Positions 9,865 through 50,354 of a stretch of DNA of 64,000 bases are shown here, piece after piece. The notes under the pieces were generated by a model. That model was given only the letters and a program-made list of their open reading frames with translations. It searched no databases and was not told the DNA's origin. Position 1 is the stretch's first letter. The number at the start of each line of letters is the position of its first letter. The position numbers were made by a program, and so were the translations under genes. The DNA is from Artocarpus heterophyllus (Eukaryota > Streptophyta > Magnoliopsida > Rosales > Moraceae): NCBI GenBank assembly GCA_025403435.1, contig JAJQZP010000440.1:558001-622000 (forward strand), read 5' to 3'.

Positions 9865-9879
9865 ACCTATTCTAGCACG

Positions 9880-10700: not shown

Positions 10701-10713
10701 TAAACAAAACCAA

Positions 10714-11838
10714 AACAAGCTCACATAAGAATCCATAATAACAATAATAAATCCAAATAAAGGTAACCCCATCTCAAGATATCGGGCACTCTATTAATAT
10801 TTAGTCTTTGTACAAAAATATCAACTTGTAAGTGATATCTTGGTGTAGTAATCAAACACTAACAATAAGAACATGTCAAACAATAAATCTTCCTTTGGGC
10901 CGATTTATTGTTTACATGTGAAATCGAATAATCATCACGTGTTTATCACCACAATTGTACATGCAATTCTGTCAAATATTGCATTTCTTTGGGCCGGTCA
11001 ATATTCACATAAGTTGTATGAACACAACTTTTTATATTTCAAAACAAATTAATTTCCATAAGAGAGGCCACTTTGGTGACATGTTGCTTCAATTAATTCA
11101 TCTCAAATATATATAAAATACCAATATTTGAATTTAAAATTACACCAAAAATGACCAAAAAATAAAAATAATAATTAAAAAAAAATTTGTCAAAGTCAAC
11201 CTGGTCAGAGTCAACAGTCAAAGTCAACATTGGCTGGGTCGGGGCTAGACCAGGTCGGGAGAACCCTACCCGGATCCTAACCCAGCCCTTTTTTTTTTGG
11301 TCACCTAGGGGTGAGAGCTGGTCATGGGCCCAGCCTGTGTATGCTATCCTTAATCCAGTCACGGGCCTAGCTGTCCCGTGTATATATATATATATATTTA
11401 TAAGCGGTAACCCAGGGGTTTGAGTCCCTGGGTTTGAACTGATCACGGGCCCAATCGGGCCCATGTAAAGAGTCTTCTCTGGTCTGGGCCGAAGCCCAGA
11501 CCTGCCTCAAAGCAACCCTAGGGGTCTTTCGACCCATGGGTGAAGATGACGGGCGGCCTAACAGTTGCCGCCCCTATGCTGTGGCCAGACGGCCGCAACT
11601 TCTCTACTCCAGATGGTCGCGCCCAGACACGGCCGACGCTGGCAGTTGTGGGGCCAGCCGTCGACGAAAGCACCTTTTTTTTTTTTTAATTCCACATGCG
11701 GCGGCCACAGTGGCCGTCGCTTTCTTGCTACGCCACGGCCTCTGGCCGAGGCACTGTCTATCCGGCGCAGCCGAGAGTCCTTCGTCGGCGGCAATAAGGA
11801 TGCTGCAGGTCTTCCCGTATTACTGAACCATAAAACCC

Positions 11839-25200: not shown

Positions 25201-28200
25201 TGAGCTGCAAGGATAAAGATAACCAGGTAGACCATTGATGGTAAAGGCATCTGAAACAATAGGATCTCCTCCAGATTGCAGAAAATAATTATAAGTCTTC
25301 ACTATATCTTGCTTCCACCATTCTCCTGCAATGCAATCAATAATTTTCCTAATTATTCTTATTATTTTTAAAATATATATATGTATACATATATAGCAAA
25401 GAGGTACTTATATATAGATGTGTAATCTTATATAGAGTGTTTAGGAATGTAGTTAGAACTAAAATATTCTAGCATATAGGGGCTTTACACTATAACAAAC
25501 TTTTGTTTTACACTTTCTAGATGGTTGGAATCAATTAGTTCCAATTGATTCAACTAGGTTCCAACTAGGTTACACTTTAGACAATGGGTTACAAGATTCC
25601 CAAACCTTTTCGTAGATAAAGGGAGAAAATAAAGGAGCCTTGGCATGTTAAAATGTATGTAATGTTTTATATCATAAATTTTTTATATAATTATATATTA
25701 TACCTAATATGACGGGGAATTCAGCATGAGGCTTGGAAAAAGGGTAATTGGTTCTATTTTTGGGGTAGATGATGATGGCACCATGGACGGTGGCTCGGTC
25801 CCACTCACTATGTGCATGCCACCAAAGGGTGCCTTCTTCTCTGGAGAATATGATCGTTTGCCTAAACTTGGCTCCAGGTTGAATTGGGCATTGTGTGATA
25901 TATTCAGGACCATCTGACCATGGATTTCTTGGTTGCCTTACTCCATGCCTGAAAATTGTTGATTGAATTTAGAGAGAAGGAGAAGAAAAATTTAAGAATC
26001 TAGAGAGAAAATAAGAACAACATTGAGGAGAATATTCTAAACAATTAGTATATTAATTATTGGTTGTCTTTGTAAGTACTGACTATCACTAGGCTATATT
26101 TACAAGCACTAACAATTTTAGTGATAATGTATACTGATAAATTATAGTGTGGTGTTCGGAAAAATCCATTAATTAATAAGTATAATTAATTAAAGATTTT
26201 TCAGTAACTAAGTCATTAAGTTCATAAGAAAGTAAGAGTTTAAAACCTATAAGCACAAATTCCTATTAAATTGTTGGGCACGACAACAATATGACAAGAT
26301 TTATCATACTATGTGCATATTGAGCTAGTTTAGGAATGACCATGTGTTTTCAGCTACAATGCTTAACGTTAAACTATGATAGTAGAAATAAGATGAACAA
26401 TAATTAAAGAGTGCAGAAGCTTAAGATCAACTTGAGACAAGTCAATAAATCCTTAATGATCCAAGCAAAATTTTAAGATTAGAAAACCCTCCCATCTAAA
26501 AGTCAAGACGAAGCAATTTTATCAGTAAGATATGTAAAATTCAATAAGTAAGAATTTCAAGTATAATACTGTATTAGTAGTATATTAAATAATTGATTGA
26601 CAGTCTAATGTGGTTAAATGACATTGATTAGCTCTTGCTTAATTTAGAGAGTTTTATGCTAGTGAGATCAAGGAACTGGTGTTATGAGTGTCATGAAATA
26701 GGTTAGTACTTATGGTGGCCTAGAAAACCTTGAAATTAATATTGAAGTGGTTAAACGACATTGATTAGCTCTGGCTTAATTTAGAGAGTTTTATGCTAGT
26801 GAGATCAAGGAACTGGTGTTATAAGTGTCATGAAATAGGTTAGTACTTATGGTGGCCTAGAAAACCTTGAAATATTGAAATTTAAATACTTAGGCTGGAG
26901 ATTTGCTTGAAAAATCCCATGTTATGTTTTTGGAAAATTATAAAATAAATTCCAAAATTCTATAGTTAATATTAAAGCTTGATTTTATAGCTCTTTCGAA
27001 AAAATAATTTGGTTTATGATTTAACACTATGATTTAAGGCTGAGAAAATTTTAAACTATATTTTTGGAGACCAAATGCCTTTTTGGTCGTTGTTTCTATA
27101 GATTCTACAACCAAATTTGGTTGCAAAAAATTTGTTTTTTAAACTTTTGTAGCAACCAAACTCAATTTGGTTGCTAAATATCTCGTCGTGGAAAACAAAA
27201 TTTATCGTAGTAACTTGAAAATTTAATATACAAGAAATTCAAGTATAATATGGTGTTAGTAGTACTATAAGCTATGTTTATAATAAAGCATAATTAGCTC
27301 ATGCGTGATTTGTTAAGTGCTTAAAAATTATGTTTTGCAAATATAATTTTTTACTTGCTGAATGAAGGTTAATTCAGTTATGTTTATGCTGTAGCTAAGA
27401 TACTTGTCAGCAACACTTGATAGGTAATGGCGAGCAGTGGATGATTGGTGGAGATAAGAATGAATACAACTTACAAAATGAATCTTCCGCAGCAGGTTTA
27501 AAATGAATTATGTATCTATATTTCAAATAGTTTTAAGTAAGTATATTTTAAAAATTGAGGTTGTAGTTATACAACCTCTAGATAATTTTAAGATTAATAT
27601 GTTGTAACGGATATCGTAACAAATATATGTAATTTCAAATAAAAAAATTTATAACGATATTTAATTTGGAAATGTTTTAAATTTGTTTTGTTTTAAATTA
27701 AGAAATGTTTATAAGAAATTGTTTTGAGTATCTACCACTGTGCCTTAAAAAAACATTCCACAAACTAAGTACTTTGTGTTAAAATATGTTTAAGTTTAAG
27801 AGGTAACGACAACATAAGTAGGGTTGTTATATATAGTACTTAAAAGAAAATGTCACTAAATACCAGTGGATTGTAATGTTGCGGTTGCCTTTGTTATAAA
27901 CATCGACCACGACGGTATCTCCTCTGCGAGCATATATCGTTGGCCCGGGAAATTTACCATTTATTGTCAAGATGTTCTTGGTGCTGCACAGCCTCGTGTA
28001 AGGGTTTTCTTCAACCTGTACATCATAAGCATAAAACGGTTCCCCATTTACTTCTCTCACACACACACACACGCACATACAAGTAAGAATGCAGGCAGAA
28101 TACAGATTGTATATGTAATAATGCTCACAAATGATGAAATTAAAATGTATAATACTAGGATGCCGGTATGATATTATTCTTTGGCTTCTGATCACACGTG

Positions 28201-28397
28201 ACATGATGATATATACACACACATATATAATATACGTATGTGTGCGCGCTAGCTATATAATGTGTGTACATCATGTATATATGTATATATGAAGTACATA
28301 TAAAGATTACCACAAAAGAATAATGAGACCAAGGTTGGCATTGGAAGACGCCAGCGAGCACTAGGACCCCTAAAAGTTGCAACCTTAAAGCCTTCAT
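22244..28397 (-). CDS. laccase (multicopper oxidase), six exons, apparently intact
   Basis: Secreted multicopper oxidase that couples one-electron oxidation of phenols to reduction of O2 to water, in the apoplast. Exons by GT-AG junctions and phase: 28311-28397, 27864-28015, 25704-25948, 25191-25325, 22949-23926, 22244-22374, giving 575 residues, the usual plant laccase length. Residues 1-22 look like a signal peptide ([15 protein letters not shown]). All four copper motifs are present: [32 protein letters not shown], and [13 protein letters not shown], whose Met is the likely type-1 axial ligand. The end is PPPPDMPPC. The motif style resembles the LAC14/LAC15 group, an inference from a few residues. 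The exon 2 acceptor (TACAG before 28015) is the least certain junction. Introns 2 and 5 contain repeats. Broken relatives flank it on both sides. Confidence 0.9.
22436..22484. repeat. 49-bp direct repeat, copy 1, in laccase intron 5
   Basis: Matches 22611-22659 with two differences. The two copies flank a fragment of copia sequence. Confidence 0.9.
22485..22610 (+). mobile_element. copia pol fragment captured in laccase intron 5
   Basis: About 126 bp match element A at 16569-16735 (shared blocks include CAAATGGAGTA, TGTTCCTATTTCTCAT and TTTCAATTCAATTTAAT), with an internal deletion of roughly 45 bases. No LTR or transposon end is present. It sits between the 49-bp direct repeats at 22436 and 22611. 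It lies on the strand opposite to the gene. Confidence 0.82.
22611..22659. repeat. 49-bp direct repeat, copy 2, in laccase intron 5
   Basis: Second copy of the repeat at 22436-22484, directly after the captured copia fragment. Confidence 0.9.
26610..26876. repeat. tandem duplication in laccase intron 2
   Basis: Two copies with a 137-bp period (starts at 26610 and 26747). They share the run from GTGGTTAAA to GGCCTAGAAAACCTTGAAAT with only a few differences, so the duplication is fairly recent. Confidence 0.9.
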
Positions 28398-32676: not shown

Positions 32677-34666
32677 TGTTGGAAACAAAGTACGCAGCGG
32701 AATTTTAAAAATTTTTCATCAGAGTAATTTCCAAAATACAAGTTTGACATGATATATGTATAAATTAAACAGATCTTACTAACCTCAGTGTGCCGAAGAA
32801 CCTCCGCAACCCGTGTAGAGAAGTAACGTTCCAGAAGAGCCTCAACCAACTGGTCTTCTTTACTATTCTCTATCCACAACCGGAGTGAGTGTGGGCTCAC
32901 ACGTACAGCTCTTCCACCGGTGACTCTCCTTCCAACCAATAGAGAGAACCCAAAGCTAGTGCTCGTGATTTGTGAACAAAAGCTCTCAGGGAGTTTTTAG
33001 ATGCTCACTAGAAGAGTATCACTCTTAATCTCTCAATTAATCTGAGTAAATCATGAGACTCACTCCCTTCTTATACCTATTGGTCCTGGGGTCAGTCCAT
33101 ATCAGATTAGGTCTCAAAAACTCGAAACAGAATCAAGTTCAGATCAATATATGATAAGATCCGCGTAAAAACGCGTAATCTTATCTCCGCTGATCGGCAG
33201 GCTGAGCACATCATCCGGCAGGCCGAACTCCTGAGAAAAAATCTCCGCGAATCTTTTATTTTCCACCCGAGATTCTAAAGGATAAAGTCTCAGTTTTGAT
33301 TCAAATAACCCAATAGAGAAGTTATCTGATCAAAACAAACTTTATCAAGATAATCTCTAAGAAAATAAATCAATTCACAATAATTCTACAAGTTTATCTT
33401 GTTCTAATTTTATCCAAAATTAAAACAACCGATAAACAGACAAGAATTAACTGATCGCAATAATTCAACAAGTTTATCTTGAACTAATTTCTTACAAAAT
33501 TAATTCAACCGATAATCAGACATGAATTATTTGATTCTTACAAATTTTAAACCAATCTGATAAATCCGACATAAGTCATCAATTATTGGAAAAGCACGCC
33601 ATGTTGTTACAGGATTTTGTGAGCTAGCAAAGGGGACCAAAATGGACCTATAAAGTTCAAGCTCATGATAATTATGAAACCCAATATCCCAGATATACAT
33701 TTCACAATTATCAACTCCAACGCTACTCCACTAAAAGCTTGGAGCTGCACTCTCGAACTTTATAGAATTACGAAGCTCGTGCAGCCAAGTCTCCATGACA
33801 TATCATAGTGCATCGTATCCCCATATGATAATCCATAATCGGCTTAAGGACAAGTTCTGTCTTACCTTCCTAATTATTTTTATCTTACGTTCCATTGTCT
33901 CACCATTAGAAAACTTACCATCCAAAAATAGTATACCATTCAGTTACACCTATGTATCCAAATGGTTGAGCGCTCCAGTTTTCCAATTACAAGACAATGC
34001 ATATAAGAGGATATCATTACTCCTAAAGAAGAGCCATGGATTCCATATATATGAATAACAAGTCTATGCTATCAAGAGTCATGCCTCCAACGTACCGGCA
34101 TGCATACCACTATAGAGATGTAGGAGTCACCCATTGGTACATCAAAAGACACAAGTCGAGATAACGGGCCCACTATTTATCTCAGGATTAAGATACAATA
34201 CAAATGACTGTCTAAAGTGAATCGATTTGCCAAGACAGAATTATTAATCCAAATTAATTCACTTTATGTCCCGATCCAACACGTCGTCACCTATGACAAC
34301 GCGCCAATGTTTCTATTCACGGAGTCCAACTCCAATGGTCAAGACAAACCATCTCCCAAAAGGGATATAGACAACATAACAATCTTTGCATGAATAAAGC
34401 GCCCGACTTTATTCCCTCGATTGTGGATCATGTGTTTTAGACCATCACCTTAAGAATCGTGTCTACCGCATAATCATCCCATCATATGCCCAATTCTTAA
34501 GGTTTAGACTGACAGTCTCAGACTACTGTTTGCTTATCATACATTCAACAAATATGAACGTAAAGAGGACAAGATTTGGTATATATAAATGAATAAATTC
34601 TTTATTGATAAAAATGTCTCCAAAAATGTATTACATTTTTACTCCTTAGGGCATACATGTCTAACA
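32677..34666 (-). repeat. 3' LTR of copia element B
   Basis: A 1,990-bp LTR, homologous along its length to 48345-50354 and to solo LTR D. It is 20 bp shorter than the 5' LTR because it lacks one GATCGGCAGGCC-containing unit near 33200. Confidence 0.93.
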
Positions 34667-34675
34667 ATCTCCCAC
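34667..34675 (-). promoter_or_regulatory. polypurine tract of element B
   Basis: The minus strand reads GTGGGAGAT directly before the 3' LTR, the standard copia plus-strand primer. Confidence 0.75.
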
Positions 34676-34680
34676 TTGCA

Positions 34681-37600
34681 CTAAGTGAGTAAATACAGCA
34701 AATTTCGCATCCCCATAGCTTCCACATGCCTCTCGAAGACTCTCCTAGTAAGTTTCTTCGTAAATGGATCAGCTAAATTGTCCTCTGACGCGATCTTGCA
34801 CACCGTGACATGCCCGCCCTCAACGAAGTCCTTTATCACATGATACTTCCGATCAATATGCTTACTCTTCTTGTGAAATCTTGGTTCCTTAGCATTAGCT
34901 ACCGTCGCACTGTTATCACAGTACAATGATACCGCCTTATCCATACCAGGAACTACTTCAAGATCCCCAAGGAACTTGTAGAGCCACACTGCTTCTTTTG
35001 AAGCATCACTAGCTGCCACATATTCGGCCTCCATCGTTGAATTCGAAGTGCAATCTTGCTTTGCACTTCTCCAACTGATAGCATCGCCACCCAGAGTAAA
35101 CACAAACCTCGAAGTCGATTTTCTAGAATCCAGACAAGATTGAAAATTTGAATCAGTGTATCCTAGAGGAGTCAAGTCCTCACCCGAATACACAAGCATA
35201 TACCCTCGAGTCCTTCTCAAGTACTTGAAAATATGCTTTACCGCAACCCAATGGTTCGGTCCTGGATCCGCCTGAAATCGACTTACAATCCCGACCGCAT
35301 AGCTAATATCCGGTCGTATGCAAAGCATGGCATACATGAGATTACCCACTGCCGAAGCATAAGGCACCTTCTTCATGTATTCTCTTTCTTCATAAGACTT
35401 TGGAGAGTCTTTCTTAGAAAGAGTAATTCCAGACCTAGATGGTTGCCCACCTTTCTTGGAATCCTGCATTGCAAACCTCCTGAGAATTTTATCTACATAG
35501 CCGGCCTGTGACAAAGCTATCATTTTGTTCTTCCTATCCCGAATGATCTGGATATCGAGAACAAAAGTCCTTCATGTCAAACTGCTTGGTCAACCATAAT
35601 TTGACCGATGACAACGCCCCAACGTCATTGCCAAGCAGAATGTCATCTACATAGAGCAGTAGAAAAACCACCTTCCCATCCTTAATGTGTTTGTAAACAC
35701 ATGGTTCATCCACGTTTTGTGAGAACCCATAAGTCTTGATCACTTGATCAAATCTTATGTTCCAAGAACGAGAAGCCTGCTTAAGTCCATAAATTGACTT
35801 TAGCAGCTTACAAACCTTACCCTCTTGACCCACGACCTTGAACCCGTCTGGTTGTTCCATATAAATGGACTCATCAAGATAGCCATTCAGAAAAGCCGTC
35901 TTGACATCCATCTACCAAATCTCGTAGTTGAGAGCGGCAGCTATGGACAAGAGAATCCGGATGGACTTAAGCATGGCTACAGGCGAAAAGGTTTCCTCAT
36001 AATCGATTCCTTCCTTTTGCGTATAACCCTTAGCTACCAGTCTAGCCTTAAAGGTTTCACCTTTCCATCCACTCCTCTTTTCCTCTTGTAGATCCACTTA
36101 CACCCTATGGGTTTTACCCCTTCGGGAAGATCCACAAGCTCCCAGACCTGATTAGTCTCCATAGACTTCATCTCTATGTTCATGGCCTCTGTCCAGAGTT
36201 TTGAATCAACATCCTTCATAGCTTCTGCGTAAGTATAAGGATCCCTGTCATGTTCATCCGGTTCAGCCAAAAAGACCTCCCCATTGAACATATACCTTTC
36301 AGGGTGACGCCCGATCCTCCCACTACGCCGAAGCCCCTGAGGTTGTTATTCAGGTTTGTTTAGTTTTTCTACACCGATCGGAATGGTTTCATTCGGAACC
36401 TCCGGAGTGAACGAATCACCCCTTAACTCCTCAAGCACCACTTTGCTTCGAGGTTTAAAGTCGTCTATGTAACTCTCCTCAAGTAAAGTTGCATTAGTTG
36501 AAACCACGACTTTATTTTCCTTAGGGTTATAAAAATAACCCCCTTTAGTCCCTTTTGGATATCCTACAAACACGCAAACTTCTGAACGTGCTTCCAACTT
36601 ATTCGGATCCTTAAACAGGACATGAGCTGGACATCCCCATATACGAATATGGTTTAAAGATGTCTTTCGTCTTGTCCACAACTCGTGAGGAGTTTTAGGG
36701 ACCGATTTTGAAGGCACATTGTTCAAAACATAACATGCGGTTTGTAGTGCATATCCCCAAAAGGATAAAGGCAATGATGAATAACTCATCGTGGATCGAA
36801 TCATGTCCAACAAAGTCCTATTCCTTCTCTCTGCTACGCCATTTTGCTGCGGAGTGCCCGGCGCAGTCAAATGGGATAAAATCTCATTCTCTAACAAGTG
36901 TCCCAAGAACTCATCAGAAAGGTATTCCCCACCTCGATCAGATCGAAGTGCCTTTATGGGTCTACCCAATTGCTTTTCCACTTCAGCCCGAAACTCCTTG
37001 AACTTATCATAAGTTTCGCTTTTGTGGTGCATTAGGTACACATACCCATATCTTGAGTAATCGTCAATAAAATTGACGAAGTACTCATACCCTCCTCGTG
37101 CCCGGATGTTCATTGGTCCGCAAACATCACTATGCACAAGTTCTAGAACCCCTTCGGCCCTATTGCCCTTAGACCCGTATGGTCTTTTGGTCATTTTACC
37201 CTCCAAACAAGATTCACATTGAGGTATAGATTCCACCTTTAAGTGACTTAAAGGTCCATCCCTTACCAACCTTTGAATCCTATTCAGGTTAATATGGCCA
37301 AGGCGCAAATGCCAAAGATAAGTCTTATTAGAGTGAGAAGTTTTAAGTCTTTTCGAGTTATTATCATTTATCTCAGCATTAAGCAATAAGTCCATCTTAG
37401 GTTTGATAAAATATAGATTATTTTGCATCCATCCAGAACAGATAAAAGATTTGTTTTTACGAATCACCACTTTTTCATTAAAAGATACCACGTAGGAGTC
37501 TTTAAATAAAGAAGATACAGAAATTAAATTCCTTTTAAATTTAAGAACATCAAAACAATCTCGCAAAATTAAATTCCTATAATTATCAAAATAAAGATGG

Positions 37601-37829
37601 ACATCTCCTACTGCTTCCGCTAAGACTAAGGATCTATCGCCCATCCGAAGCATTAAGTCTTCACGAAGTAGACTTCTCTTTTCTTTGAATCCCTGCAGAG
37701 AAACACAAACATGATTAGTTGCACCGGAATCTATGACCCAGATGTCACTGGATTCCTCAACCAAACAAGTTTCTAAATATAGAAGATCACACCTACCTCC
37801 CTTGGAAAGGTAGTGCTTGTAATGCTTCT
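34681..37829 (-). pseudogene. copia B pol: protease, integrase, reverse transcriptase, RNase H
   Basis: Minus-strand order: the second half of the gag knuckle region, protease ([13 protein letters not shown], about 37735), pre-integrase with the HHCC zinc motif ([12 protein letters not shown] ... CESCLEGK), integrase core ([40 protein letters not shown]), and its C-terminal part ending at a stop near 36346. Reverse transcriptase follows ([48 protein letters not shown]) with a frameshift near 36060, a stop near 35912 and a further frameshift near 35550. RNase H (GYTDSNFQSC, STMEAEYVAASDA, DNLADPFTKKL) ends at 34681. Protease to integrase is still one long open frame (36346-37764). Confidence 0.92.
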
Positions 37830-39804
37830 TGTAACGCCCCTATATGGGGGTTAACAGTTTTTAATGAGATAAAATAAAAATAAATAATAAAAGTAAAACC
37901 TTAAAAATAAAATTTGCCCGGGACTTAAATGAAAACTCTCAACTCAAAAATAAAAATATAAACGATAAATAAACCACAGTTTTAATATAGCACCTTAAAT
38001 TTAATAATATAAACTGTTGTCATCATCATTTTAACCCTCAACACATTGTAATACAGTCACAGAAAGTAACAATTGATGCTTACATTATCATGAAGAACAT
38101 TCTCAACAATTGAAGCAGTCCCAATGTAATATAGCTACATCACTTCCTCAACTATATTTCTCGTAGCCACCTCACACTTAGTGAGTCCTGAAAAGATAAA
38201 AATATAAGGGTATGAGCAACACTATGCTCAGTAGAGAAAGCCATTACTCACCTTTAGGTTTTTATCATTACCACATTAAAACCTGCATGGTTAGTAAGTC
38301 ACATCATATTCCAGATTATGAGGTTTATTATGATCATATCTTATGGATACCGTAGTTAATCATTACCAAGTGTCATAATTACACATTTATACAAATATTA
38401 CCAATCATCATTGTTCCTAGGTATCCATGTTAAATTGAGTATCACTCAACTCATCGAAACTCAAATGGGCGCCCTTGATCACCCTATAAACATTCCAAGG
38501 GTGTTCCGGTGAGGGGACATCAAGCCCCGAGTCCTCACCAAATCGATTCCTGTACAGTGTGTTCTGGGACTTTCAACCCAAGGAAGCGTCATCACCTTCC
38601 CCCTATTTTACCTTTTAGGGTATTCATGCCCAAGGACGTAATCGCCGCCCTCTTCATGTCTCACCATTTCTCCATATTAAATCATTATTAATAGAGTCAG
38701 TTTTCCTAACCATGCTTCTCAATTTATAACATGTGTCAATTCATTATGTTCCTCGCCGTACAATACAAGACGAGTCCATGTCATAGTTTCATATGTGATA
38801 ATCATATAATATCAGTTCAACATAGATATATATATATTGCGGCAAAACAATCAATTTTAATTCTATAAAAACCTCACAAAAGATGAGTAATAGAATCCCT
38901 ACCTTTCAAGCTTATCAACAGTCTCTTAATCCTGGAATCAATTAACGTTAGCTCCATACTCCCTTGATCCTAAGGCGTGCATAAGGACAATTAAAACTAA
39001 AGCACAACATACAACTACATTCATAAAATTTATTTTAATTTAATCTTAGAATTTCAAGAAATAACCACTGCCCATAGAGGTATTATAAAGTTTAACAATA
39101 TAAATTTTCTGTCTAGGGCATATACACTTAGACTTCATACATATGCTCCAAAATAGCAACAAACATATACTTAGGTTTAAGAACGCAAATTTGAATAATC
39201 CTTTAGTATAAAAGAAAATTTATAAATGAAAGACTAAATTTGTTCATAAGATTCTAACCTCGGATTATGGTTAGTTGGAAGCTTGAAATGGCTTCAAAAC
39301 AGGTTCCTTTACTTCGGTATGACTGAAATTCTTGCTCAAATGGAGGTGATGGTGGCTGATTTTTATGGCTGCCTTGAAGAAGTTCTCTAAGTATTTTGCT
39401 TCAGCAAAAAAAATGAGAAGAAGAGTGTGGGAACCGTGGAAGAAAAAGGAAGAAAAGATGAAGTCTTTGAAAAGAAGTGATAGAAACAATTATAGAGGAG
39501 ACATGTTGAAGCATGTCACGGAGGAAATAAAGAAAATGAGGGTCAAGAGTAGTTGGAAAAGATATCCTTATGTCTCATCTAAAGACTTTAACACACATAA
39601 TGCCAATATGACATTTTTGAGATTTATTAGAAGTTCTAAGGCTTTTTAGTAATCATACTAAATAAATATAGGAGAATTTTAGAAAATTTAAAAATAGATA
39701 AAAATAAATATTATAAAATAAATTTAAATGAAGCAATTTTTTTTTATACATTAAAAATTAATTTAATTACCTCAATACCCGTTAGAAGAATAACGGGTGT
39801 CACA
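37830..39804 (-). repeat. 3' LTR of element G
   Basis: Plus-strand reading begins TGTAACGCCCCTATATGGGG and ends TAACGGGTGTCACA. Same length as 44064-46038. Differences seen at about 38467, 38667 and 38755. A hairpin, ACCCGTTA/TAACGGGT, lies at 39777-39798. The 94-residue open frame at 39365-39649 is repeated in the other LTR and has no recognisable family, so I do not call it a gene. Confidence 0.95.
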
Positions 39805-39820
39805 GCTCTACCCCCCTTAA
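39805..39820 (-). promoter_or_regulatory. polypurine tract of element G
   Basis: On the minus strand TTAAGGGGGGTAGAGC immediately precedes the LTR start TGTGACACCC, as in many plant gypsy elements. Confidence 0.8.
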
Positions 39821-40758
39821 AGAAATTTCGTCCTCGAAATTTCAATTCTAGCAATACTAGTAAAAATTATGATTCCACTATGATTCCAATTCTGAGTCTA
39901 AACCGTTAATGTTGTTTGTCCTCCAAATTTAAGTTATCGTATCTCCACTTATTTACTTGCATAATAAATCTTACTCCTAAATCCCTCAATGAGAGTATTT
40001 CTGACAAGTTTCAACTTATAACACCGTATAATAGTCTAAGAATCTGATCAGGCCTACATATTGACCATATCATGATTCCAGTCCTTCATTGTCCATGGAC
40101 TGTGATTTACAATCACATTTAAGGAGATTGCCAGAGAAATTTTATATACTTCATCTTTAGGTTCCTTTTCCTTTTTGAGTAAGGAAAAGTCAAATATATT
40201 TGATTTCATACCTCAACTAATAAACTAAAACATAATCATAAAACATATATCACAAACACTTATATTCAAAACCATACATTAAACTTATTCATAGAGATAT
40301 TAAACGGAATCTCTGGTTGCAAACATACCCGACATATTTTTCATTAAACAGCTATCCTCATGACACAAACATTCAATCCAAATAATATACTCATATTTCA
40401 TATGGAATATCCCCATAACTGACTTTGGTACTTCCACATAATATTAACAGAATATTACACATTACAAACATGATACGGATACGTTTCGAGAGTACAAGGC
40501 ACTCCGTATACCAGCTATCCATATCATGCATGCTTAGAGGATACAAAAACATCGATAAACAAAAGATCGGACCTTAAGAAGGATGCGTTTCGAGAGCATC
40601 AAGTACTCCGTATCCAGCCATCCCGGCATTAGGCTCAATGAATCTAAAAGATTGAACAACAACGTACCACAAGAAACACAGAATACAAGGCAAACGGTTA
40701 TTCGTAACACACGAAATACGGACACACATGCCTACATGCCAAAGATAAAACAAAAAGA
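39821..40758. other. element G interior, 3' noncoding part
   Basis: No gene seen. An imperfect direct repeat of about 54 bp (40477-40530 and 40581-40634, both opening GGATRCGTTTCGAGAG) lies downstream of the LOG-like ORF. Confidence 0.5.
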
Positions 40759-41409
40759 TTACAGATGGAGATTCAAATCAATTGGCCGCTCCCGGCTTTC
40801 CCTTTCCCATTCAAGCTTGGATGTTGCAGTGTCGGATTCTGGATGTATGATTTGCATTTTATCTATCAATTCCTCAGCTGTTGAAGCAGTGACAAAGATT
40901 TGTCTCTCCGATTCTGTAGTGATGTTTTCTTCCACAGCGTAATCTAGAAATTTCAAAAGACCGTCATAAAAACCCTTTACGTTCAGCAGTCCCAAAGGTT
41001 TGGAATAAAAGCCCAACAATTGCCCACAAGCAACTATAAATATTTCCTCAAGAGTACCTAGACCACCAGGTAATGCTATAAAAGCATCAGAATTATAGAT
41101 TATGTCTTTAAAATTTTTAGGGATACTCCTGACTCCTTCTCCCTTACCTATGGCTTCCTTACAAAGGTTTCCTTCAACTGGAATATGAGGCCAAATTCTT
41201 ACATCAGTAGCGTCACTAGACCTAGCTGCTAGTGCCATATTTACCATCATTTTTATACTACCACCCCCATAGATTATGTTAATCTTCTTGCGTGCTAGGA
41301 CTTGCCCTAAGTGATTTGCAGCTTCTAAATAAGCTTTATCTTTTCCAAGGCTGGAACCACAAAAGACACAGACATTCTTTATTTTCTTCGTGGACTGGGA
41401 GGTAGACAT
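40759..41409 (-). CDS. LOG-like protein (cytokinin riboside 5'-monophosphate phosphoribohydrolase family) inside element G
   Basis: 216 residues from the first good ATG, close to the usual LOG length, in one uninterrupted frame. The LOG enzyme hydrolyses cytokinin nucleotide to free base and ribose 5-phosphate in the cytosol. Seen here: the Rossmann start VCVFCGSSLGK (13-23), INIIYGGGSI (43-52), the signature PGGLGTLEE (114-122), and KPLGLLNVKGFYDGLLKFLD (137-156). The middle (56-108) is divergent: the family's conserved QRK-type segment before SDAF is IPKNFKD here, so the catalytic arginine may be lost, and the Gly after GGGS is absent. After SKLEWE the C terminus ends DLNLHL, an LxLxL pattern. 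Plant LOG genes normally have several introns, so this is an intronless captured copy. Activity is uncertain. Confidence 0.82.
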   Translation of the reverse strand: MSTSQSTKKIKNVCVFCGSSLGKDKAYLEAANHLGQVLARKKINIIYGGGSIKMMVNMALAARSSDATDVRIWPHIPVEGNLCKEAIGKGEGVRSIPKNFKDIIYNSDAFIALPGGLGTLEEIFIVACGQLLGFYSKPLGLLNVKGFYDGLLKFLDYAVEENITTESERQIFVTASTAEELIDKMQIIHPESDTATSKLEWERESRERPIDLNLHL

Positions 41410-42052
41410 ATTTGGTTTATAGAAGTGGTTGCTTAATGTCTGCTCCACTTAGACTTCGGGTTCTACATGAGTTTTTAAAGATGAGAAATATACAAAAAGG
41501 GCTAAAGAGATAGACAAGTAGGTAATGAAAAGGTAATCCAAAGATTTAAACAAAATCTTGTGCGGATAAGAAAGTAAGATAAGGTGATTGATAGTTTACA
41601 GAAAATTTGATTCACTTTTTGAAAAAGATTAGACTCTAATTGTATAACTTTTGACAACTGAGAACAATTCGACAGAAGACCCTCATGACACAACTGTAGA
41701 CTTTTTGACAAATATACACCAAGTCTAGAAATTTAATATAAACGACAAATACTGTAGAACTTTTGAAATTTGAGACACAAATCTTGAAATATCTGGATAA
41801 GCTTTTCAAAATTCAAACATATTACTATACCGTATGTGACGTGTCTGATAAAATAATATATTTTATTATATATATATTTAAGAAAATCATAAATTAAATA
41901 AGATATTAACACTTACTGTATCAATCTAATAATCACAATTATTTCAAACACAAAAGCAAATATTTTGAGTAAAAGAAAAACACAAACTGTTGAACATCAG
42001 CTAAAACTGCTTCAAATAAGTAAAGACTAAATAACCTTTATAGAGCGATGAC
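41410..42052. other. element G spacer between the two ORFs
   Basis: About 640 AT-rich bases with no recognisable gene. It may hold the promoter or 5' leader of the LOG-like ORF. I see no convincing single TATA box. Confidence 0.45.
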
Positions 42053-42574
42053 TTATTCCCCATCCAGTTTTCTTATGGCTTGGCAAACAGGATCTAAAAA
42101 TACCATATTCCTGAGGCGTTGTCTTTCTGTATAAAATTTAGGCCAGAGTTTAAAAATAGCTCCTTGAACATATCCACTAGGGTGACCGTGGAGAGGAGGA
42201 TGGATGCTATCCAAGTTCTCCTTTGAAAGTCCATCCCTACAAAACCTTATTTTATCCTCTCTATTCGTAGAAATATAACCAGGTGAAGTACATTTACCGT
42301 TACAATTTTGTCTTCCACATTTGTTACAAGTGACCACGATGGCACGAGCTCTTCTTTTCATTGCACTACGACTGGTACCTGTTCCTGGTAAACCGACATC
42401 TTGACTAAAGTCACTCGGACGGATTTTCCCCTCTATTAACATTCTCACATCACAAGGGATGCCAAAACGCATAAGAATCCACAACCGAGTAATTCTAGCC
42501 TTGTATTTCTTTCTAAGAATCTTTTGGGAGAGTGATGGGAAATACTTTCTCAGGTGTTGGTACTTTGGGTCCAT
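42053..42574 (-). CDS. cysteine-rich basic protein resembling flexi-type virus nucleic-acid-binding proteins
   Basis: 173 residues, intact, with a true ATG at 42574. The N-terminal 60 residues are basic and helical in character. Residues 66-78 form a Ser/Arg/Lys-rich stretch (GTSRSAMKRRARA), followed by four cysteines at 83, 86, 91 and 95 (C-x2-C-x4-C-x3-C) and then SPGYIS. A basic run followed directly by such a Cys cluster and a PG motif is the layout of the small nucleic-acid-binding proteins encoded at the 3' end of carlavirus-type genomes, some of which suppress RNA silencing. The spacing is not the CCHC knuckle of gag. The C-terminal half (100-173) I do not recognise. The family call is by eye only. 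It could instead be a highly derived gag or an unknown plant gene. It lies in the gag position, about 1.5 kb after the primer site. Confidence 0.5.
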   Translation of the reverse strand: MDPKYQHLRKYFPSLSQKILRKKYKARITRLWILMRFGIPCDVRMLIEGKIRPSDFSQDVGLPGTGTSRSAMKRRARAIVVTCNKCGRQNCNGKCTSPGYISTNREDKIRFCRDGLSKENLDSIHPPLHGHPSGYVQGAIFKLWPKFYTERQRLRNMVFLDPVCQAIRKLDGE

Positions 42575-44043
42575 GATGAGATGAAAGAAGAGTAAATAGA
42601 AAGGAAAAATTAAGATAGTAAATTGCAGAATCCTAGAATTCCTTCTTCTTTTAGAGAAAAAGAAGAATTTTTAATGAAAAAGAAGAGGATTTGCGATTTA
42701 GAGAGAAAATAACAAATTAAGAGAGAAAAAGTGAACTCGGAGAAATAAGCTCCTATGCACAGTAAACGTATTTGTAAACATTAATTAAACCACTGTATAT
42801 GACACGTATAGAGACCACGTGGGAGAGACAGTGTGAATCAAACTGATTTAGGATTTAAACTAGGCCCAAATGTTCTTAGTTGAAAATGGTCAGGTTGTTT
42901 CGGGCCTTAACACATTTAGAACGAGTTAAATAACAAACATAAAATTGAAAACCAATTTGTATAAATCTTAAACCCAATTTAAAGCCCACTATAGATAAAG
43001 TTAACTATGAACAACAAATCTAATTTAACGACAACAAGGATCTTCCTGAATGATATTTAAAATCATTTCATAACAACATAATCTTCCAGCAACTCAAATA
43101 ATTTTGTTTTAATCAAAACCTTATTGAACAATGCATACACCCATATGTTATTCCTAATACTCAACATCTATCAATGGATTCATCATCATTACTACCAAGG
43201 GTTTAGAATGCGACTAACCTTGAAATCAATACGATTTACGTCTTTCAACGTAGACCATATCAATGAACAAAGACACTTGATGTTACTACTTAAGAACATC
43301 TATAATCCCCATAATTCTACTCATACAATATATAATTTCCTCATATAACAAAACCTTAGGTAACCAAAAGATTCACTGATACACTTAAATACAATGTACG
43401 TAACGAAATATTCCAATTTTGAGATTCATGCATTCTAGACTTTACACAGTCTCAACAGACCAAAAGTCTAACATTTATCTCTCTCAAGATTCAATACCAT
43501 GATTCCCAACTTATATCATATTCCTCAAATATATAGAACTTTTAAGAAAAGACATTGACACTTATGTGCTCCATCGAATCCACACATAATCATTACTTAG
43601 GTTTGAATCAATTACGAAAAATTTGGCATATCTATGTCAAACTTTAAAATCAATAAATCAAGCCTTATATTTCTTATTGTTTTTCACGAGACAAAAGGCT
43701 TTTAAATCCTCGTATCTATACGAATTTCTCATCGTTTATACGAATTAGATATGCTTATAGATCCAAATATTATACGAATCTCTCATAAGCATTCTACTTA
43801 TAAACTCATTCCATATAATTATCATTCCCTTATAACTATTAATACTTTCCTTCTATATAATTATTGTACTCATATAACTATTGATATTTTCATTCTATGG
43901 CCTTTCCATGTTACATCCTTCTAGACTGTATAAATCAATGTGAAGGTTCATTTTGATGATGACAATAAAAATTCAGCTTCAAAACCATCTCAAAAATATA
44001 TTTTTTTAAAGTGGTGCTACACTCCCTAGGTTAACCGAACCTA
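42575..44043. other. element G leader
   Basis: The 1.5-kb leader between primer site and the first ORF has no recognisable gene. A palindromic G-box, CCACGTGG (42815-42822), lies 240 bases upstream of the cysteine-rich ORF. A hairpin with stem CCTAGGTT/AACCTAGG (44025-44032 with 44038-44045) overlaps the edge of the primer site. Confidence 0.55.
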
Positions 44044-44056
44044 GGCTCTGATACCA
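44044..44056 (-). promoter_or_regulatory. primer-binding site of element G (initiator tRNA-Met)
   Basis: The minus strand reads TGGTATCAGAGCC, complementary to the 3' end of plant initiator tRNA-Met, seven bases inside the 5' LTR. Confidence 0.9.
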
Positions 44057-44063
44057 AAAATTC

Positions 44064-46038
44064 TGTAACGCCCCTATATGGGGGTTAACAGTTTTTAATG
44101 AGATAAAATAAAAATAAATAATAAAAGTAAAACCTTAAAAATAAAATTTGCCCGGGACTTAAATGAAAACTCTCAACTCAAAAATAAAAATATAAACGAT
44201 AAATAAACCACAGTTTTAATATAGCACCTTAAATTTAATAATATAAACTGTTGTCATCATCATTTTAACCCTCAACACATTGTAATACAGTCACAGAAAG
44301 TAACAATTGATGCTTACATTATCATGAAGAACATTCTCAACAATTGAAGCAGTCCCAATGTAATATAGCTACATCACTTCCTCAACTATATTTCTCGTAG
44401 CCACCTCACACTTAGTGAGTCCTGAAAAGATAAAAATATAAGGGTATGAGCAACACTATGCTCAGTAGAGAAAGCCATTACTCACCTTTAGGTTTTTATC
44501 ATTACCACATTAAAACCTGCATGGTTAGTAAGTCACATCATATTCCAGATTATGAGGTTTATTATGATCATATCTTATGGATACCGTAGTTAATCATTAC
44601 CAAGTGTCATAATTACACATTTATACAAATATTACCAATCATCATTGTTCCTAGGTATCCATGTTAAATTGAGTATCACTCAACTCATCGAAACTCAAAT
44701 GGGCGCACTTGATCACCCTATAAACATTCCAAGGGTGTTCCGGTGAGGGGACATCAAGCCCCGAGTCCTCACCAAATCGATTCCTGTACAGTGTGTTCTG
44801 GGACTTTCAACCCAAGGAAGCGTCATCACCTTCCCCCTATTTTACCTTTTAGGGTATTCATGCCCAAGGACGTAATCGCCGCCCTCTTCATGTCTCACCA
44901 TTTCTCTATATTAAATCATTATTAATAGAGTCAGTTTTCCTAACCATGCTTCTCAATTTATAACATGTGTCAATTCATTATGTTCCTCACCGTACAATAC
45001 AAGACGAGTCCATGTCATAGTTTCATATGTGATAATCATATAATATCAGTTCAACATAGATATATATATATTGCGGCAAAACAATCAATTTTAATTCTAT
45101 AAAAACCTCACAAAAGATGAGTAATAGAATCCCTACCTTTCAAGCTTATCAACAGTCTCTTAATCCTGGAATCAATTAACGTTAGCTCCATACTCCCTTG
45201 ATCCTAAGGCGTGCATAAGGACAATTAAAACTAAAGCACAACATACAACTACATTCATAAAATTTATTTTAATTTAATCTTAGAATTTCAAGAAATAACC
45301 ACTGCCCATAGAGGTATTATAAAGTTTAACAATATAAATTTTCTGTCTAGGGCATATACACTTAGACTTCATACATATGCTCCAAAATAGCAACAAACAT
45401 ATACTTAGGTTTAAGAACGCAAATTTGAATAATCCTTTAGTATAAAAGAAAATTTATAAATGAAAGACTAAATTTGTTCATAAGATTCTAACCTCGGATT
45501 ATGGTTAGTTGGAAGCTTGAAATGGCTTCAAAACAGGTTCCTTTACTTCGGTATGACTGAAATTCTTGCTCAAATGGAGGTGATGGTGGCTGATTTTTAT
45601 GGCTGCCTTGAAGAAGTTCTCTAAGTATTTTGCTTCAGCAAAAAAAATGAGAAGAAGAGTGTGGGAACCGTGGAAGAAAAAGGAAGAAAAGATGAAGTCT
45701 TTGAAAAGAAGTGATAGAAACAATTATAGAGGAGACATGTTGAAGCATGTCACGGAGGAAATAAAGAAAATGAGGGTCAAGAGTAGTTGGAAAAGATATC
45801 CTTATGTCTCATCTAAAGACTTTAACACACATAATGCCAATATGACATTTTTGAGATTTATTAGAAGTTCTAAGGCTTTTTAGTAATCATACTAAATAAA
45901 TATAGGAGAATTTTAGAAAATTTAAAAATAGATAAAAATAAATATTATAAAATAAATTTAAATGAAGCAATTTTTTTTTATACATTAAAAATTAATTTAA
46001 TTACCTCAATACCCGTTAGAAGAATAACGGGTGTCACA
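44064..46038 (-). repeat. 5' LTR of element G
   Basis: Pairs with 37830-39804, same length, nearly identical. Flanked on the outside by CTTCT. Confidence 0.95.
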
Positions 46039-46043
46039 CTTCT

Positions 46044-46740
46044 TTATATGCCTGACCTTACCACAGAAGAAGCACTTAAGCTTCTTTGGGTTCTTCTTCT
46101 TCTTCTTCTTGCTCTTGGTTGCAGGAGGAATAGAAGACTTCCCACTCTTGGCCCGTTGCTTCTTTCCATTCCCAGAGTTAGGATTAGAACCAGAAGCAGC
46201 TACCATATTGGCCTCACCACCAGCAGGAGACTCCCTAATCAGCAGTTCAAACTCCTATAACTGTTTCATCAGTTCTGTCAAGGTCATATCCCGTCTGTTG
46301 CTTAAATTAAAAGTAGCTCTAAACGGAATAAATTCCTTAGACAGAGTCTCAAAGACCATAGTCATCTGAGTTTCAGCATCAATGTCGGCTCCATTGGTTT
46401 GAGCCTCAGCGAGGTAACCCATGACCAACATCATGTGCTCCTTTACAGATGTCCCCGGTCTCTATCTACAGTTTAAGAGTTTCCCCCTTGCCGCTTCGTT
46501 ATAGCCTGGCCTCCGAACATATCCTCAGCGGGCCTGATCATTAGCATTTTTCCAGCGGTCGTACGCTTGGAATTGCTCATTACTTGAGTCTCCTGTAGGC
46601 TCGGGAGGACAAGGAGTTGTCAGAATATATTTCAGTTTCTTAAAGGAAAGGACGATGTCCAGGTTCCGTTTCTAATCATTATAGTTCTCACTGGTTAATT
46701 GGTTTTTGTCAAGTATCGATGATAAAGCGTTTTTAGACAT
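46044..46740 (-). pseudogene. copia B gag, cut by element G
   Basis: The minus strand starts with ATG at 46740 (MSKNALSSILDKNQLTSENY), continues through KEFIPFRATFNLSNRRDMTL, a lysine-rich linker and the zinc knuckle CFFCGKVRHIKK, which is broken at 46044 and continues at 37829 with HYKHY. At least two stops interrupt it, near 46465 and near 46258. Confidence 0.85.
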
Positions 46741-48329
46741 TTTCAATCTACAATAAAGAATCATGTACCAAACATAAGCAAACATATATAATAATTTCGT
46801 AAGATAACACAATCATGTAAAATCATACAAATGTGTTTATGTGTCAAAACCTTGAAAATATCACAACCTTACAACGATAATTCCCAACTGAGAATTCAAC
46901 AAGCTCCTAGGGGAGTCATGCCAAATTCAATTAGGAACACGGATCCCCTCCAGATTAATATATGCCATCCAGGACCCGTATGATCCAGCATATACTAATA
47001 ATCGTTTCTTTGGCCATTAATTTTATTAACAGAGCTCTTAGGGGAGGTTAATAATAAAATTAACGTGTGTGTATAACCACCGTTTCAATATTTTATCCAT
47101 GATTTATAATCACCACCTAGGGGTGTGCAACCATAAATCATACTAAAATACCTTATCCTTTCAGAGATCCAATCTGGTACATGATAGAAATCCCTTCCTA
47201 GGGGTCAGGACCACCATGTTCTTCCTATGGAGCAATGATGGAGGCCTTAGGTCTTCTCTTCGAAAACCTTCTCCCACTCAATCTTTTGAAGTCAAGGTTT
47301 TATTTTAAAATTATGCATGAACAATTTTAATATGAGCGGCACTCCCTATTCTATATGGCATGTTATCAATATACATAGTAAATCATATTATAATGCAGAC
47401 AAGCAAAGCTACAAGCAAAATAATAATAACCGTAATATTATGGTTCCACCCTAGAGAATAGAGAACTAAGATTATAAGAGAATAATCGAGACATTTATCG
47501 ATTCTTCATCCTTGAATCCTCAAGTTGTATCCTTCTTCATGTAATATCCATCTTCAAGTCTTCAATCCTGAATGAATCGAATACTTCATATTTCCGTTCA
47601 TATCCAAATTTAATGTTTCTTAGAATCGTCCCAAAAATAAAATTAAAACTGCACCTGAAAAATTGCACCTTTTCTGGACACCTAACAGCTCTCGGTCGAC
47701 AGGCCGGTCTGGGTGATCGGCCTGCCGATTATGAAGGTTCGGCCTGCCGACAGAGCACCAAAATTTCTGCCCCACTGTCGGCCTACCAGACCACACGTCC
47801 GGCCTGCCGATCTGTGACCTTCGGCCTACCGATCAAACAGAAAACCCTCAATCCAGAAAATACAATTTTAATGCAATTCATCAATTTTATTTTCAACAAT
47901 TCAAAAACATAAAATTAGAGACTCAAGAAATACCTGGAGGCGCCATCATCAATCTTCTAGATTCGACTTCTCAATCCGTCTTCTCCGAATAATTATTTAA
48001 TTACAAATTCTTACAAATTAAAAATTAAATAACAATTCCTAGACGGAGATGATAGTCCGCCATCTAATTACATGAAAAACCTAGATACACATTCTAACCT
48101 CTAAGAAACCATAACCGGTATTAATTAATTAATAAATAATTAAACAATGATTTAATCAACCATAATTAATTAATAAACATTCACCACATAATCTATGACA
48201 ACATATATATTATATAGAAACCTAGAGTGCCATCTCTCTATAAAATTCAATTCAAGCATAGGAGAGATTAAGATCACAAAATTTATGCATATAACATGAT
48301 CACAAACTTGCAAATTTATGTAAAAAATT
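46741..48329 (-). other. leader of copia element B
   Basis: A 1.6-kb leader between the primer site and gag. Positions 47692-47835 contain five or six copies of the TCGGCCTGCCGA palindrome or close variants, the same motif that recurs in the LTR. No gene otherwise. Confidence 0.7.
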
Positions 48330-48342
48330 GGCTCTGATACCA
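48330..48342 (-). promoter_or_regulatory. primer-binding site of element B (initiator tRNA-Met)
   Basis: The minus strand reads TGGTATCAGAGCC two bases after the 5' LTR. Confidence 0.92.
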
Positions 48343-48344
48343 AT

Positions 48345-50354
48345 TGTTGGAAACAAAGTACGCAGCGGAATTTTAAAAATTTTTCATCAGAGTAATTCCA
48401 AAACACAAGTATAACATGATATATGTATAAATTAAACAGATCTTACTAACCTCAGTGTGCCGAAGAACCTCCGCAACCCGTGTAGAGAAGTAACGTTCCA
48501 GAAGAGCCTCAACCAACTGGTCTTCTTTGCTATTCTCTATCCACAACCGGAGTGAGTATGGGCTCACACGTACAGCTCTTCCACTGGTGACTCTCCTTCC
48601 AACCAATAGAGAGAACCCAAAGCTAGTGCTCGTGATTTGTGAACAAAAGCTCTCAGGGAGTTTTCAGATGCTCACTAGAAGAGTATCACTCTTAATCTCT
48701 TAATTGATCTGAGTAAATCATGAGACTCACTCCCTTTTTATACCTATTGGTCCTGGGGTCAGTCCATATCAGATTAGGTCTCAAAAACTCGAAACAGAAT
48801 CAAGTTCGGATCAATATCTGATAAGATCTGCGTAAAAATGCGTAATCTTATCTCCGCTGATCGGCAGGCCGAACATTCTGATCGGCAGGCTGAGCACGTC
48901 ATCCGGTAGGCCGAACTCCTGAGAAAAAATCTCCTCGAATCTTTTATTTTCCACCCGAGATTCTAAAGGATAAAGTCTCAGTTTTGATTCAAATAACCCA
49001 ATAGAGAAGTTATCTGATCAAAACAAACTTTATCAAGATAATCTCTAAGAAAATAAATCAATTCACAATAATTCTACAAGTTTATCTTGTTTTAATTTTG
49101 TCCAAAATTAAAACAACCGATAAACAGACAAGAATTAACTGATCGCAATAATTCAACAAGTTTATCTTGAACTAATTTCTTACAAAATTAATTCAACCGA
49201 TAATCAGACATGAATTATTTGATTCTTACAAATTTTAAACCAATCTGATAAATCCGACATAAGTCACCAATTATTGGAAAAGCACGCTGTGTTATTACAG
49301 GATTTTGTGAGCTAGCAAAGGGGACCAAAATGGACCTATAAAGTTCAAGCTCATGATAATTATGAAACCCAATATCCCAAATATACATTTCACAATTATC
49401 AACTCCAACGCTACTCCACTAAAAGCTTGGAGCTGTACTCTCGAACTTTATAGAATTACGAAGCTCGTGTAGCCAAGTCTCCATGACATATCATAGTGCA
49501 TCGTATCCCCATATGATAATCCATAATCGGCTTAAGGACAAGTTCTGTCTTACCTTCCTGATTATTTTTATCTTATGTTCCATTGTCTCACCATTAGAAA
49601 ACTTACCATCCAAAGATAGTATGCCATTCAGTTACACCTATGTATCCAAATGGTTGAGTGCTCCAGTTTTTCAATTACAGGACAACGCATATAAGAGGAT
49701 ATCATTACTCCTAAAGAAGAGCCATGGATTCCATATTTATGAATAACAAGTCTACGCTATCAAGAGTCATGCCTCCAACGTACCGGCATGCATACCACTA
49801 TAGAGATGTGGGAGTCATCTATTGGTACATCAAAAGACACAAGTCGAGATAACCGGCCCATTATTCATCTCAAGATTAAGATACAATACAAATGACTGTC
49901 TAAAGTGAATCGATTTGCCAAGACAGAATTATTAATCCAAATCAATTCACTTTATGTCCCGATCTAACACATCGTCACCTATGACAACGCGTCAATGTTT
50001 CTATTCACGGAGTCCAACTCCAATGGTCAAGACAAACTATCTCCCAAAAGGGATATAGACAACATAACAATCTTTACATGAATAAAGTGCTCAACTTTAT
50101 TCCCTCGATTGTGGATCATGTGTTTTAGACCATCACCTTAAGAATCGTGTCTACCGCATAATCATCCCATCATATGCCAAATTCTTAAGGTTTAGACTAA
50201 CAATCTCAGACTACTGTTTGCTTATCATACATTCAACAAATATGAACGTAAAGAGGACAAGATTTGGTATCTATAAATGAATAAATTCTTTATTGATAAA
50301 AATGTCTCCAAAAATGTATTACATTTTTACTCCTTAGGGCATACATATCTAACA
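48345..50354 (-). repeat. 5' LTR of copia element B
   Basis: 2,010 bp, plus-strand reading TGTTGGAAACAAAG to ATATCTAACA. It has the full set of GATCGGCAGGCC units (about 48855-48915). Flanked outside by TCATG. Confidence 0.93.

What the first reader, a model, noticed from the sequence alone, without database searches (positions are those of the whole stretch)
37830..46038. Non-autonomous LTR retrotransposon that has swapped gag-pol for a LOG-like gene and a virus-like cysteine-rich gene
Seen: matching LTRs, target duplication, primer site and polypurine tract, and an interior with no retroviral domain but two intact ORFs in the direction of element transcription. Known: LOG makes active cytokinin, and cysteine-rich proteins of carlavirus type bind nucleic acid, can suppress silencing, and in at least one case act as a transcription factor that promotes cell proliferation. 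Inference: an element carrying both could favour its own spread by dampening silencing and altering cell division, or the pair may simply be transduced passengers. I know of no described element with this cargo.
Basis: partly seen in the sequence, partly recalled or inferred. Interest (0 to 1): 0.88.

Follow-up and report, generated by a model that had tools for sequence, protein, structure and literature searches.

The report
Retrotransposon carrying two accessory genes only
This is a recently inserted plant jumping element that lacks its own copying machinery and keeps two accessory genes, one related to plant-virus proteins that block RNA silencing and one related to a hormone-activating enzyme but probably no longer able to do that job.

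Summary
37830-46038 (minus strand) is a complete LTR element: two 1,975-bp LTRs with 3 differences, a CTTCT duplication, a Met-type primer site, a G-rich tract, no detectable gag-pol, and two intact sense ORFs far longer than chance gives. The virus-like ORF belongs to a large family (855 database matches, 120 seen, named ones from plants). One relative lies intact, in sense, 204 nt after the integrase ORF of a Ty3/gypsy element (L001), so a gypsy accessory gene is likelier than a stray viral capture. The family resembles flexivirus nucleic-acid-binding proteins / silencing suppressors by profile and, modestly, by predicted fold. LOG-domain ORFs in plant LTR elements are already in print, so 'no described element' is wrong for LOG. 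The window LOG lacks the catalytic Arg and substrate-pocket residues, so cytokinin activation is unlikely; it keeps a C-terminal LxLxL tail common among its relatives. Best reading: a non-autonomous element, moved in trans, that kept gypsy-type accessory genes without gag-pol. Copy number in its genome, dN/dS and the gag-pol partner could not be tested; the genome search did not complete. The gypsy-flexivirus link is the most interesting part.

The parts
37825..37829 (.). target-site duplication CTTCT, left
46039..46043 (.). target-site duplication CTTCT, right
44064..46038 (-). 5' LTR (element reads on the minus strand), TGTGACACCC...GGGGCGTTACA
37830..39804 (-). 3' LTR, 3 differences from the 5' LTR in 1,975 bp
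44045..44056 (-). primer-binding site TGGTATCAGAGC (Met-tRNA type; assignment recalled)
42053..42574 (-). 173-aa ORF, flexivirus NABP-like protein of a gypsy-associated family, Cys motif CX2CX4CX3C
40759..41409 (-). 216-aa ORF, LOG-family protein that keeps PGGxGTxxE, lacks the catalytic Arg, and ends in LNLHL
39805..39820 (-). polypurine-type tract TTAAGGGGGGTAGAGC next to the 3' LTR
39827..39838 (-). TTCGAGGACGAA, resembling the 3' pol end / tract region of Tekay-type chromoviruses (recalled)
32677..50188 (-). Ty1/copia element that holds the insertion: repeats 32677-34500 and 48345-50188, 95.9% alike (outer limits not traced)

Best explanation
A non-autonomous plant LTR retrotransposon, mobilised in trans. 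It lost gag-pol (or formed without it) and kept two gypsy-type accessory genes in sense orientation, in the order NABP-like then LOG-like. Shown: complete ends, recent insertion, intact ORFs, homology of both ORFs, and an NABP-like gene directly downstream of gypsy integrase in L001. Inferred: (1) a related element with the same LTR, primer site and polypurine tract supplies gag-pol; (2) the NABP-like protein binds RNA through its basic stretch and Cys cluster and dampens silencing of element RNA, as flexivirus relatives are named to do; (3) the LOG-like protein no longer activates cytokinin and works, if at all, as a nucleotide-binding or host-repressing accessory through its LxLxL (EAR-type, recalled) tail.
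For: Ends and age. NABP family: 855 database matches with an alignment query, best 120 listed, named ones from Populus, Xanthoceras, Acer, Hibiscus, Rhamnella and Orobanche, clusters of up to 566 member sequences (repeat-like). L001: Ty3/gypsy integrase ORF 104-1594 (PF00665 2.4e-16, PF17921 1.4e-12), then intact NABP ORF 1799-2344 with PF05515 3.3e-8, 34.2 bits against a cut-off of 23, 51% identical to the window protein. LOG (YgdH) in LTR-element consensuses of Citrus and Populus is in print (PMC9289625 section 12). A contig length of 8,723 is shared by a LOG hit (P0065) and an NABP hit (P0149), which hints at one contig (chance about 2.5% by a length-jitter test among contigs of 5 kb to 1 Mb, 8% from 3 kb). 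The 90% cluster of the LOG ORF holds 8 member sequences on 12 contigs (P0016; the window's own may be among them); an NABP 133/139 identical, from residue 35 on, stands for 8 members (P0001). Catalytic loss.
Against: No pol is left in the window element, so its lineage is not shown. Its primer site and 3' end look chromovirus (Tekay)-like while L001 looks Athila-like (both recalled), so the genes may have been captured by a foreign chassis. NABP beside pol rests on one contig, whose 3' LTR is not on it. Co-occurrence of NABP and LOG outside the window rests on one shared contig length; five short lengths (734 to 1309) also coincide, at least some by chance, since a 734-nt contig cannot hold both genes. 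No copy number, dN/dS or expression. The window NABP alone is below Pfam's cut-off (16.3 against 23). The window LOG is on a very long branch (1.21), and the window NABP shares a 0.66 stem with one relative only, which could also mean relaxed selection. P0001 lacks the first 34 residues.
Confidence: 0.6

Rival explanations
1. Chimeric element: a Tekay-type chromovirus derivative (primer site, polypurine tract, LTR) captured the accessory genes of an Athila-type element by template switching, and they amplified on the new chassis. This is a sub-case of the best explanation, so the two odds overlap.
For: Met-type primer site and the TTCGAGGACGAA...AAGGGGGG 3' end look Tekay-like by recall; the integrase ORF upstream of NABP in L001 shows no chromodomain by Pfam at E 0.001.
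Against: Lineage labels are recalled; Met primer sites are the commonest in plants (39% of elements, PMC6317226); a scan of IMG/VR for the 3'-end pattern found nothing, so no Tekay relative was compared.
Confidence: 0.35
2. One reading: the element makes active cytokinin through LOG and suppresses silencing through NABP, favouring its own spread.
For: Both ORFs intact in a young insertion; the NABP family resembles silencing suppressors.
Against: In the LOG, Arg99 is Asn, Lys100 Phe, Met96 Ile, Trp129 Gly, Glu125 Ile (Corynebacterium numbering). Alanine at the AMP-binding and catalytic residues nearly abolished activity there (PMC4979012, passages). Glu122 and the PGGxGTxxE motif are kept.
Confidence: 0.07
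3. Passengers: a transduced host LOG transcript and an endogenised carlavirus fragment with no function, hitch-hiking in a LARD-type element.
For: Divergent proteins; loss of LOG catalytic residues.
Against: The NABP family is multi-copy, with named members from plants and one gypsy context; the LxLxL tail and the Cys cluster are kept; the closest NABP sequence is 96% identical over 139 aa without a stop.
Confidence: 0.2

Closest known systems
Extra ORFs (eORF / aORF) of plant Ty3/gypsy elements, including YgdH/LOG-domain ones (PMC9289625; PMC7264820, PMC11728184; Steinbauerova et al. 2011 not held)
   Same: [quoted passage not shown] LOG-domain ORFs reported in elements of Citrus and Populus
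   Different: Here gag-pol is absent and the LOG-like ORF is paired with an NABP-like ORF; the NABP relation was not seen in the papers read in part or in the search listings
Flexivirus (carla-, viti-, tricho-, allexivirus) nucleic-acid-binding protein, PF05515 / PF01623
   Same: Basic stretch, Cys cluster, profile match for most family members scanned, predicted-fold matches
   Different: About 180 aa with a conserved C-terminal helical part; found beside gypsy pol in L001; no virus gene seen beside it in the window or L001
LONELY GUY cytokinin riboside 5'-monophosphate phosphoribohydrolase
   Same: PGGxGTxxE motif and full-length homology; best solved match At2g37210, E 2e-43
   Different: Catalytic Arg, adenine-pocket and prenyl-pocket residues replaced; C-terminal LxLxL tail
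LARD-type non-autonomous LTR elements (recalled)
   Same: Long LTRs, interior over 4 kb, no gag-pol
   Different: Two intact protein genes kept

Membership tests
LTR retrotransposon | Near-identical LTRs with TG...CA ends, TSD, primer site, polypurine tract | tested here: met
Non-autonomous (LARD-type) element | Interior without gag-pol domains | tested here: met
   the two long ORFs match LOG and NABP families; 32 of 32 other interior pieces of 40 aa or more show no retroviral domain
Athila lineage of Ty3/gypsy | RT/RH/INT of Athila type | not testable with these tools
   no pol in the window element; L001 has gypsy integrase, Athila assignment recalled
Gypsy 3' accessory ORF | Sense ORF between pol and 3' LTR, conserved between elements | tested here: inconclusive
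   position after pol shown for one relative, L001; the window has no pol to refer to; the 3' LTR of L001 is not on the contig
Flexivirus NABP (PF05515) | Profile match above the gathering score | tested here: not met
   window protein 16.3 bits against 23; L001 relative 34.2 bits, met; 22 of 27 family members match at E <= 0.01
Flexivirus NABP | Cys cluster next to a basic stretch | tested here: met
   C at L001 residues 85, 88, 93, 97 kept in 93, 95, 96, 94 of 98 rows and in the window
Flexivirus NABP | Nucleic-acid binding / silencing suppression | not testable with these tools
   bench test needed
LOG enzyme | Catalytic Arg99 and Glu122 (Corynebacterium numbering) | tested here: not met
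   Arg replaced by Asn, Glu kept (residues from PMC4979012)
LOG enzyme | PGGxGTxxE motif | tested here: met

The most novel reading that the evidence does not exclude
Plant Ty3/gypsy elements encode a widespread accessory protein that shares ancestry with the flexivirus RNA-silencing suppressors, so retroelements and RNA viruses exchanged an anti-silencing gene, perhaps from element to virus. The window element would be a streamlined parasite of its relatives that kept only this suppressor and an EAR-tailed, catalytically dead LOG protein that represses host genes.
Probability: 0.3. Interest if true: 0.85.

Novelty: new variant of a known kind. Interest (0 to 1): 0.6.

Why it matters
If the gypsy accessory protein suppresses silencing, plant LTR elements carry a counter-defence gene shared with RNA viruses. 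That could help to explain how some families amplify in heavily silenced genomes and where the flexivirus suppressors come from. A non-autonomous element that keeps only such genes would suggest that they pay their way without gag-pol. The LOG branch offers a test of how a hormone enzyme turns into a non-enzymatic accessory.

Tried and rejected
Endogenous carlavirus: rejected as the main reading, because the relatives seen are about 180 aa, multi-copy, from many plants, and one lies after gypsy integrase. Active LOG: rejected on residues. Hidden gag-pol remains: none by Pfam in 32 of 32 interior pieces. IMG/VR scans for NABP, LOG, the L001 pol piece and the 3'-end pattern gave nothing useful (one search gave one LOG-like locus at 26%, not followed). 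A first NABP model was too weak to use (pLDDT 68); a deeper alignment with the L001 protein first gave 83.5. Solved structures: 9 matches, all E above 4. Pairwise dN/dS of the window and L001 NABP genes is saturated (dS about 4, dN 0.46), so it is no test of selection.

Weak points: the shared contig length 8,723 has a 2.5 to 8% chance under a length-jitter test on lengths I copied from the listings, 119 of 120 LOG rows and 124 of 125 NABP rows. The age of about 58 to 108 thousand years uses recalled substitution rates. Lineage names (Athila for L001, Tekay for the chassis), the Met-tRNA assignment, the EAR meaning of LxLxL, the LARD label and the family membership of most viruses are recalled. 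Steinbauerova et al. 2011 is not held; I recall from its abstract that two Athila-like elements showed similarity to LOGL4.

Full report
What is there. A repeat search of 36500-47500 found one pair of direct repeats. Extended, they are 1,975-bp LTRs at 37830-39804 and 44064-46038 with 3 differences. The element reads on the minus strand: 5' LTR, primer site TGGTATCAGAGC at 44045-44056, an NABP-like ORF at 42574-42053, a LOG-like ORF at 41409-40759, a TTAAGGGGGGTAGAGC tract, 3' LTR. The target duplication is CTTCT. With recalled rates of 1.3e-8 and 7e-9 per site per year the LTR difference gives about 58,000 to 108,000 years. The two ORFs are 205 and 229 codons stop to stop; 0 of 2000 first-order simulations of the interior reached 205. 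The other 32 interior pieces of 40 aa or more were all scanned against Pfam and show no retroviral domain; the few matches are sub-threshold (best E 0.015). The element interrupts a Ty1/copia element: integrase and SH3 domains at 36346-37653 and repeats of 95.9% identity at 32677-34500 and 48345-50188.

The NABP-like gene. The window protein alone matches PF05515 weakly (E 0.0098). A protein search found 15 relatives, one annotated in Hibiscus cannabinus; 14 of 15 carry PF01623 as precomputed. An alignment search found 855 matches at E <= 0.01 among 2411 candidates, the best 120 listed; named ones come from Populus, Xanthoceras, Acer, Hibiscus, Rhamnella and Orobanche, and one cluster has 566 member sequences. 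The 735 not listed may include viral proteins. Of 27 members scanned, 22 match PF05515 (best 1.2e-8) and 23 match PF01623 (best 1.3e-6). The four Cys are kept in 93, 95, 96 and 94 of 98 aligned rows and in the window; the 98 rows are a hand-made choice out of 127 sequences at hand. A model of the L001 relative, not of the window protein (pLDDT 83.5), found 53 viral predicted structures at E <= 10, none at E <= 0.001. Of the first 30, 26 have a name and all 26 are proteins of plant flexiviruses (family by recall), nearly all named nucleic-acid- or RNA-binding protein or RNA silencing suppressor; 4 are unnamed; TM-scores are modest (0.23 to 0.38 by query length). Solved structures gave no usable match. 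So homology to flexivirus NABPs rests on agreement of moderate profile and weak fold signals, not on one strong match. In a tree of 97 rows (one short row dropped) the window protein pairs only with P0002 (100/99), on a 0.66 stem.

The gypsy context. A scan of genome contigs with the family alignment returned one locus, L001 (3,330 nt, labelled a Nomurabacteria MAG, evidently plant DNA). It holds a Ty3/gypsy integrase ORF at 104-1594 and, 204 nt further, an intact NABP-like ORF at 1799-2344 in the same sense. No chromodomain was found at E 0.001; I would call it Athila from recalled motifs. Database entry P0139 equals the translation of L001 1787-2344. No LOG-like gene was found on L001: P0065, P0021, P0069, P0107, P0023 and the window LOG gave no convincing tblastn match there (best 13 residues of P0065 at E 0.032), but the contig ends before a 3' LTR. 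L001 is the strongest evidence that the NABP-like gene is a gypsy 3' accessory gene; it is a single contig.

The LOG-like gene. It matches Arabidopsis At2g37210 at E 2e-43. Of 3,893 database matches at E <= 1e-20 the best 120 are listed; 87 of these 120, the window's own cluster included, end in LxLxL within the last 15 residues. Many of the 120 are near copies, several of them named as Populus. In a tree of 114 of the 120 (6 dropped for length), the window protein lies in a set of 100 rows, 82 of them LxLxL-tailed (99/96; midpoint root). Five rows that I take as canonical LOGs lie on the other side on a 0.77 branch. The window's own branch is 1.21 and meets another long branch, so its exact place is unsure. 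The tail label needs about 15 changes on that tree, so it is clustered, not a single clean gain. Residues tested in Corynebacterium LOG come from passages of PMC4979012. Among 112 LOG-like relatives (the window protein, five canonical ones and two over 330 aa left out) 104 keep Arg99 and Glu122, but only 9 keep Lys100 and 8 keep Glu125. The window has Asn at 99 and Phe at 100, keeps Glu121 and Glu122, and also lacks Met96, His97, Glu125 and Trp129. Loss of Lys100 and Glu125 is thus common in the group, and loss of Arg99 and Trp129 is rare outside the window copy (7 and 3 of 112). It is unlikely to activate cytokinin.

Pairing outside the window. Contig lengths in the LOG and NABP listings share seven values: 8,723, one Xanthoceras chromosome, and five short ones (734 to 1309), at least some of them by chance. 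A jitter test puts at least one coincidence at 2.5% for contigs of 5 kb to 1 Mb and 8% from 3 kb. This is a hint only.

Known work. PMC9289625 (section 12 and passages read) reports YgdH/LOG domains in LTR-element consensuses of Citrus sinensis, C. clementina and, without its filter, Populus trichocarpa, and cites Steinbauerova et al. 2011, which is not held. PMC7264820 (parts 1 and 2 of 3 read) reviews accessory ORFs. PMC6317226 (passages) and PMC11728184 (passages) describe extra ORFs, with Athila ones given as 3' examples in the latter. In PMC11963269 I saw only its listing and a reference entry. My paper searches on carlavirus or NABP together with retrotransposons listed no report of the NABP link (listings only, and searches showed 20 of 67, 20 of 52 and 20 of 30 papers). 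PMC9289625 does not mention NABP or flexiviruses in its main text. PMC3136472 (passages) describes endogenised RNA-virus sequences, with no mention of nucleic-acid-binding or cysteine-rich proteins by those terms.

Mechanism. Shown: a complete young element without detectable gag-pol but with two intact accessory ORFs. Inferred: mobilisation in trans, RNA binding and silencing suppression by NABP, and a non-enzymatic role for LOG. Confidence in the whole is 0.6. The main gap is that the genome itself could not be searched: 15 identical requests did not complete (listed in Tried and rejected).

Noticed in passing
L001 2348-2416 and P0215: After the stop of the L001 NABP ORF the frame stays open for 22 codons and resembles the C-terminal extension of a relative (P0215) that ends in LSLSL; possible stop readthrough or an old longer form.
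   Followed up: partly
window 22845-23990 and 27827-28252, minus: Multicopper-oxidase (laccase-type by recall) gene pieces, Pfam PF07731, PF00394 and PF07732.
   Followed up: no
window 6623-10773, minus: Another Ty1/copia element in several frames (RVT_2 at 7214-8788; frames).
   Followed up: no
window 43806-43898: 42-bp tandem repeat, 2.2 copies, in the non-coding 5' interior of the element.
   Followed up: no
window 40477-40520 and 40581-40623: Two copies of about 44 bp, 84% alike, just downstream of the LOG ORF.
   Followed up: no
P0017 and P0018 (Xanthoceras): LOG-like proteins that look like two LOG domains, one partial, joined in one annotated protein.
   Followed up: no
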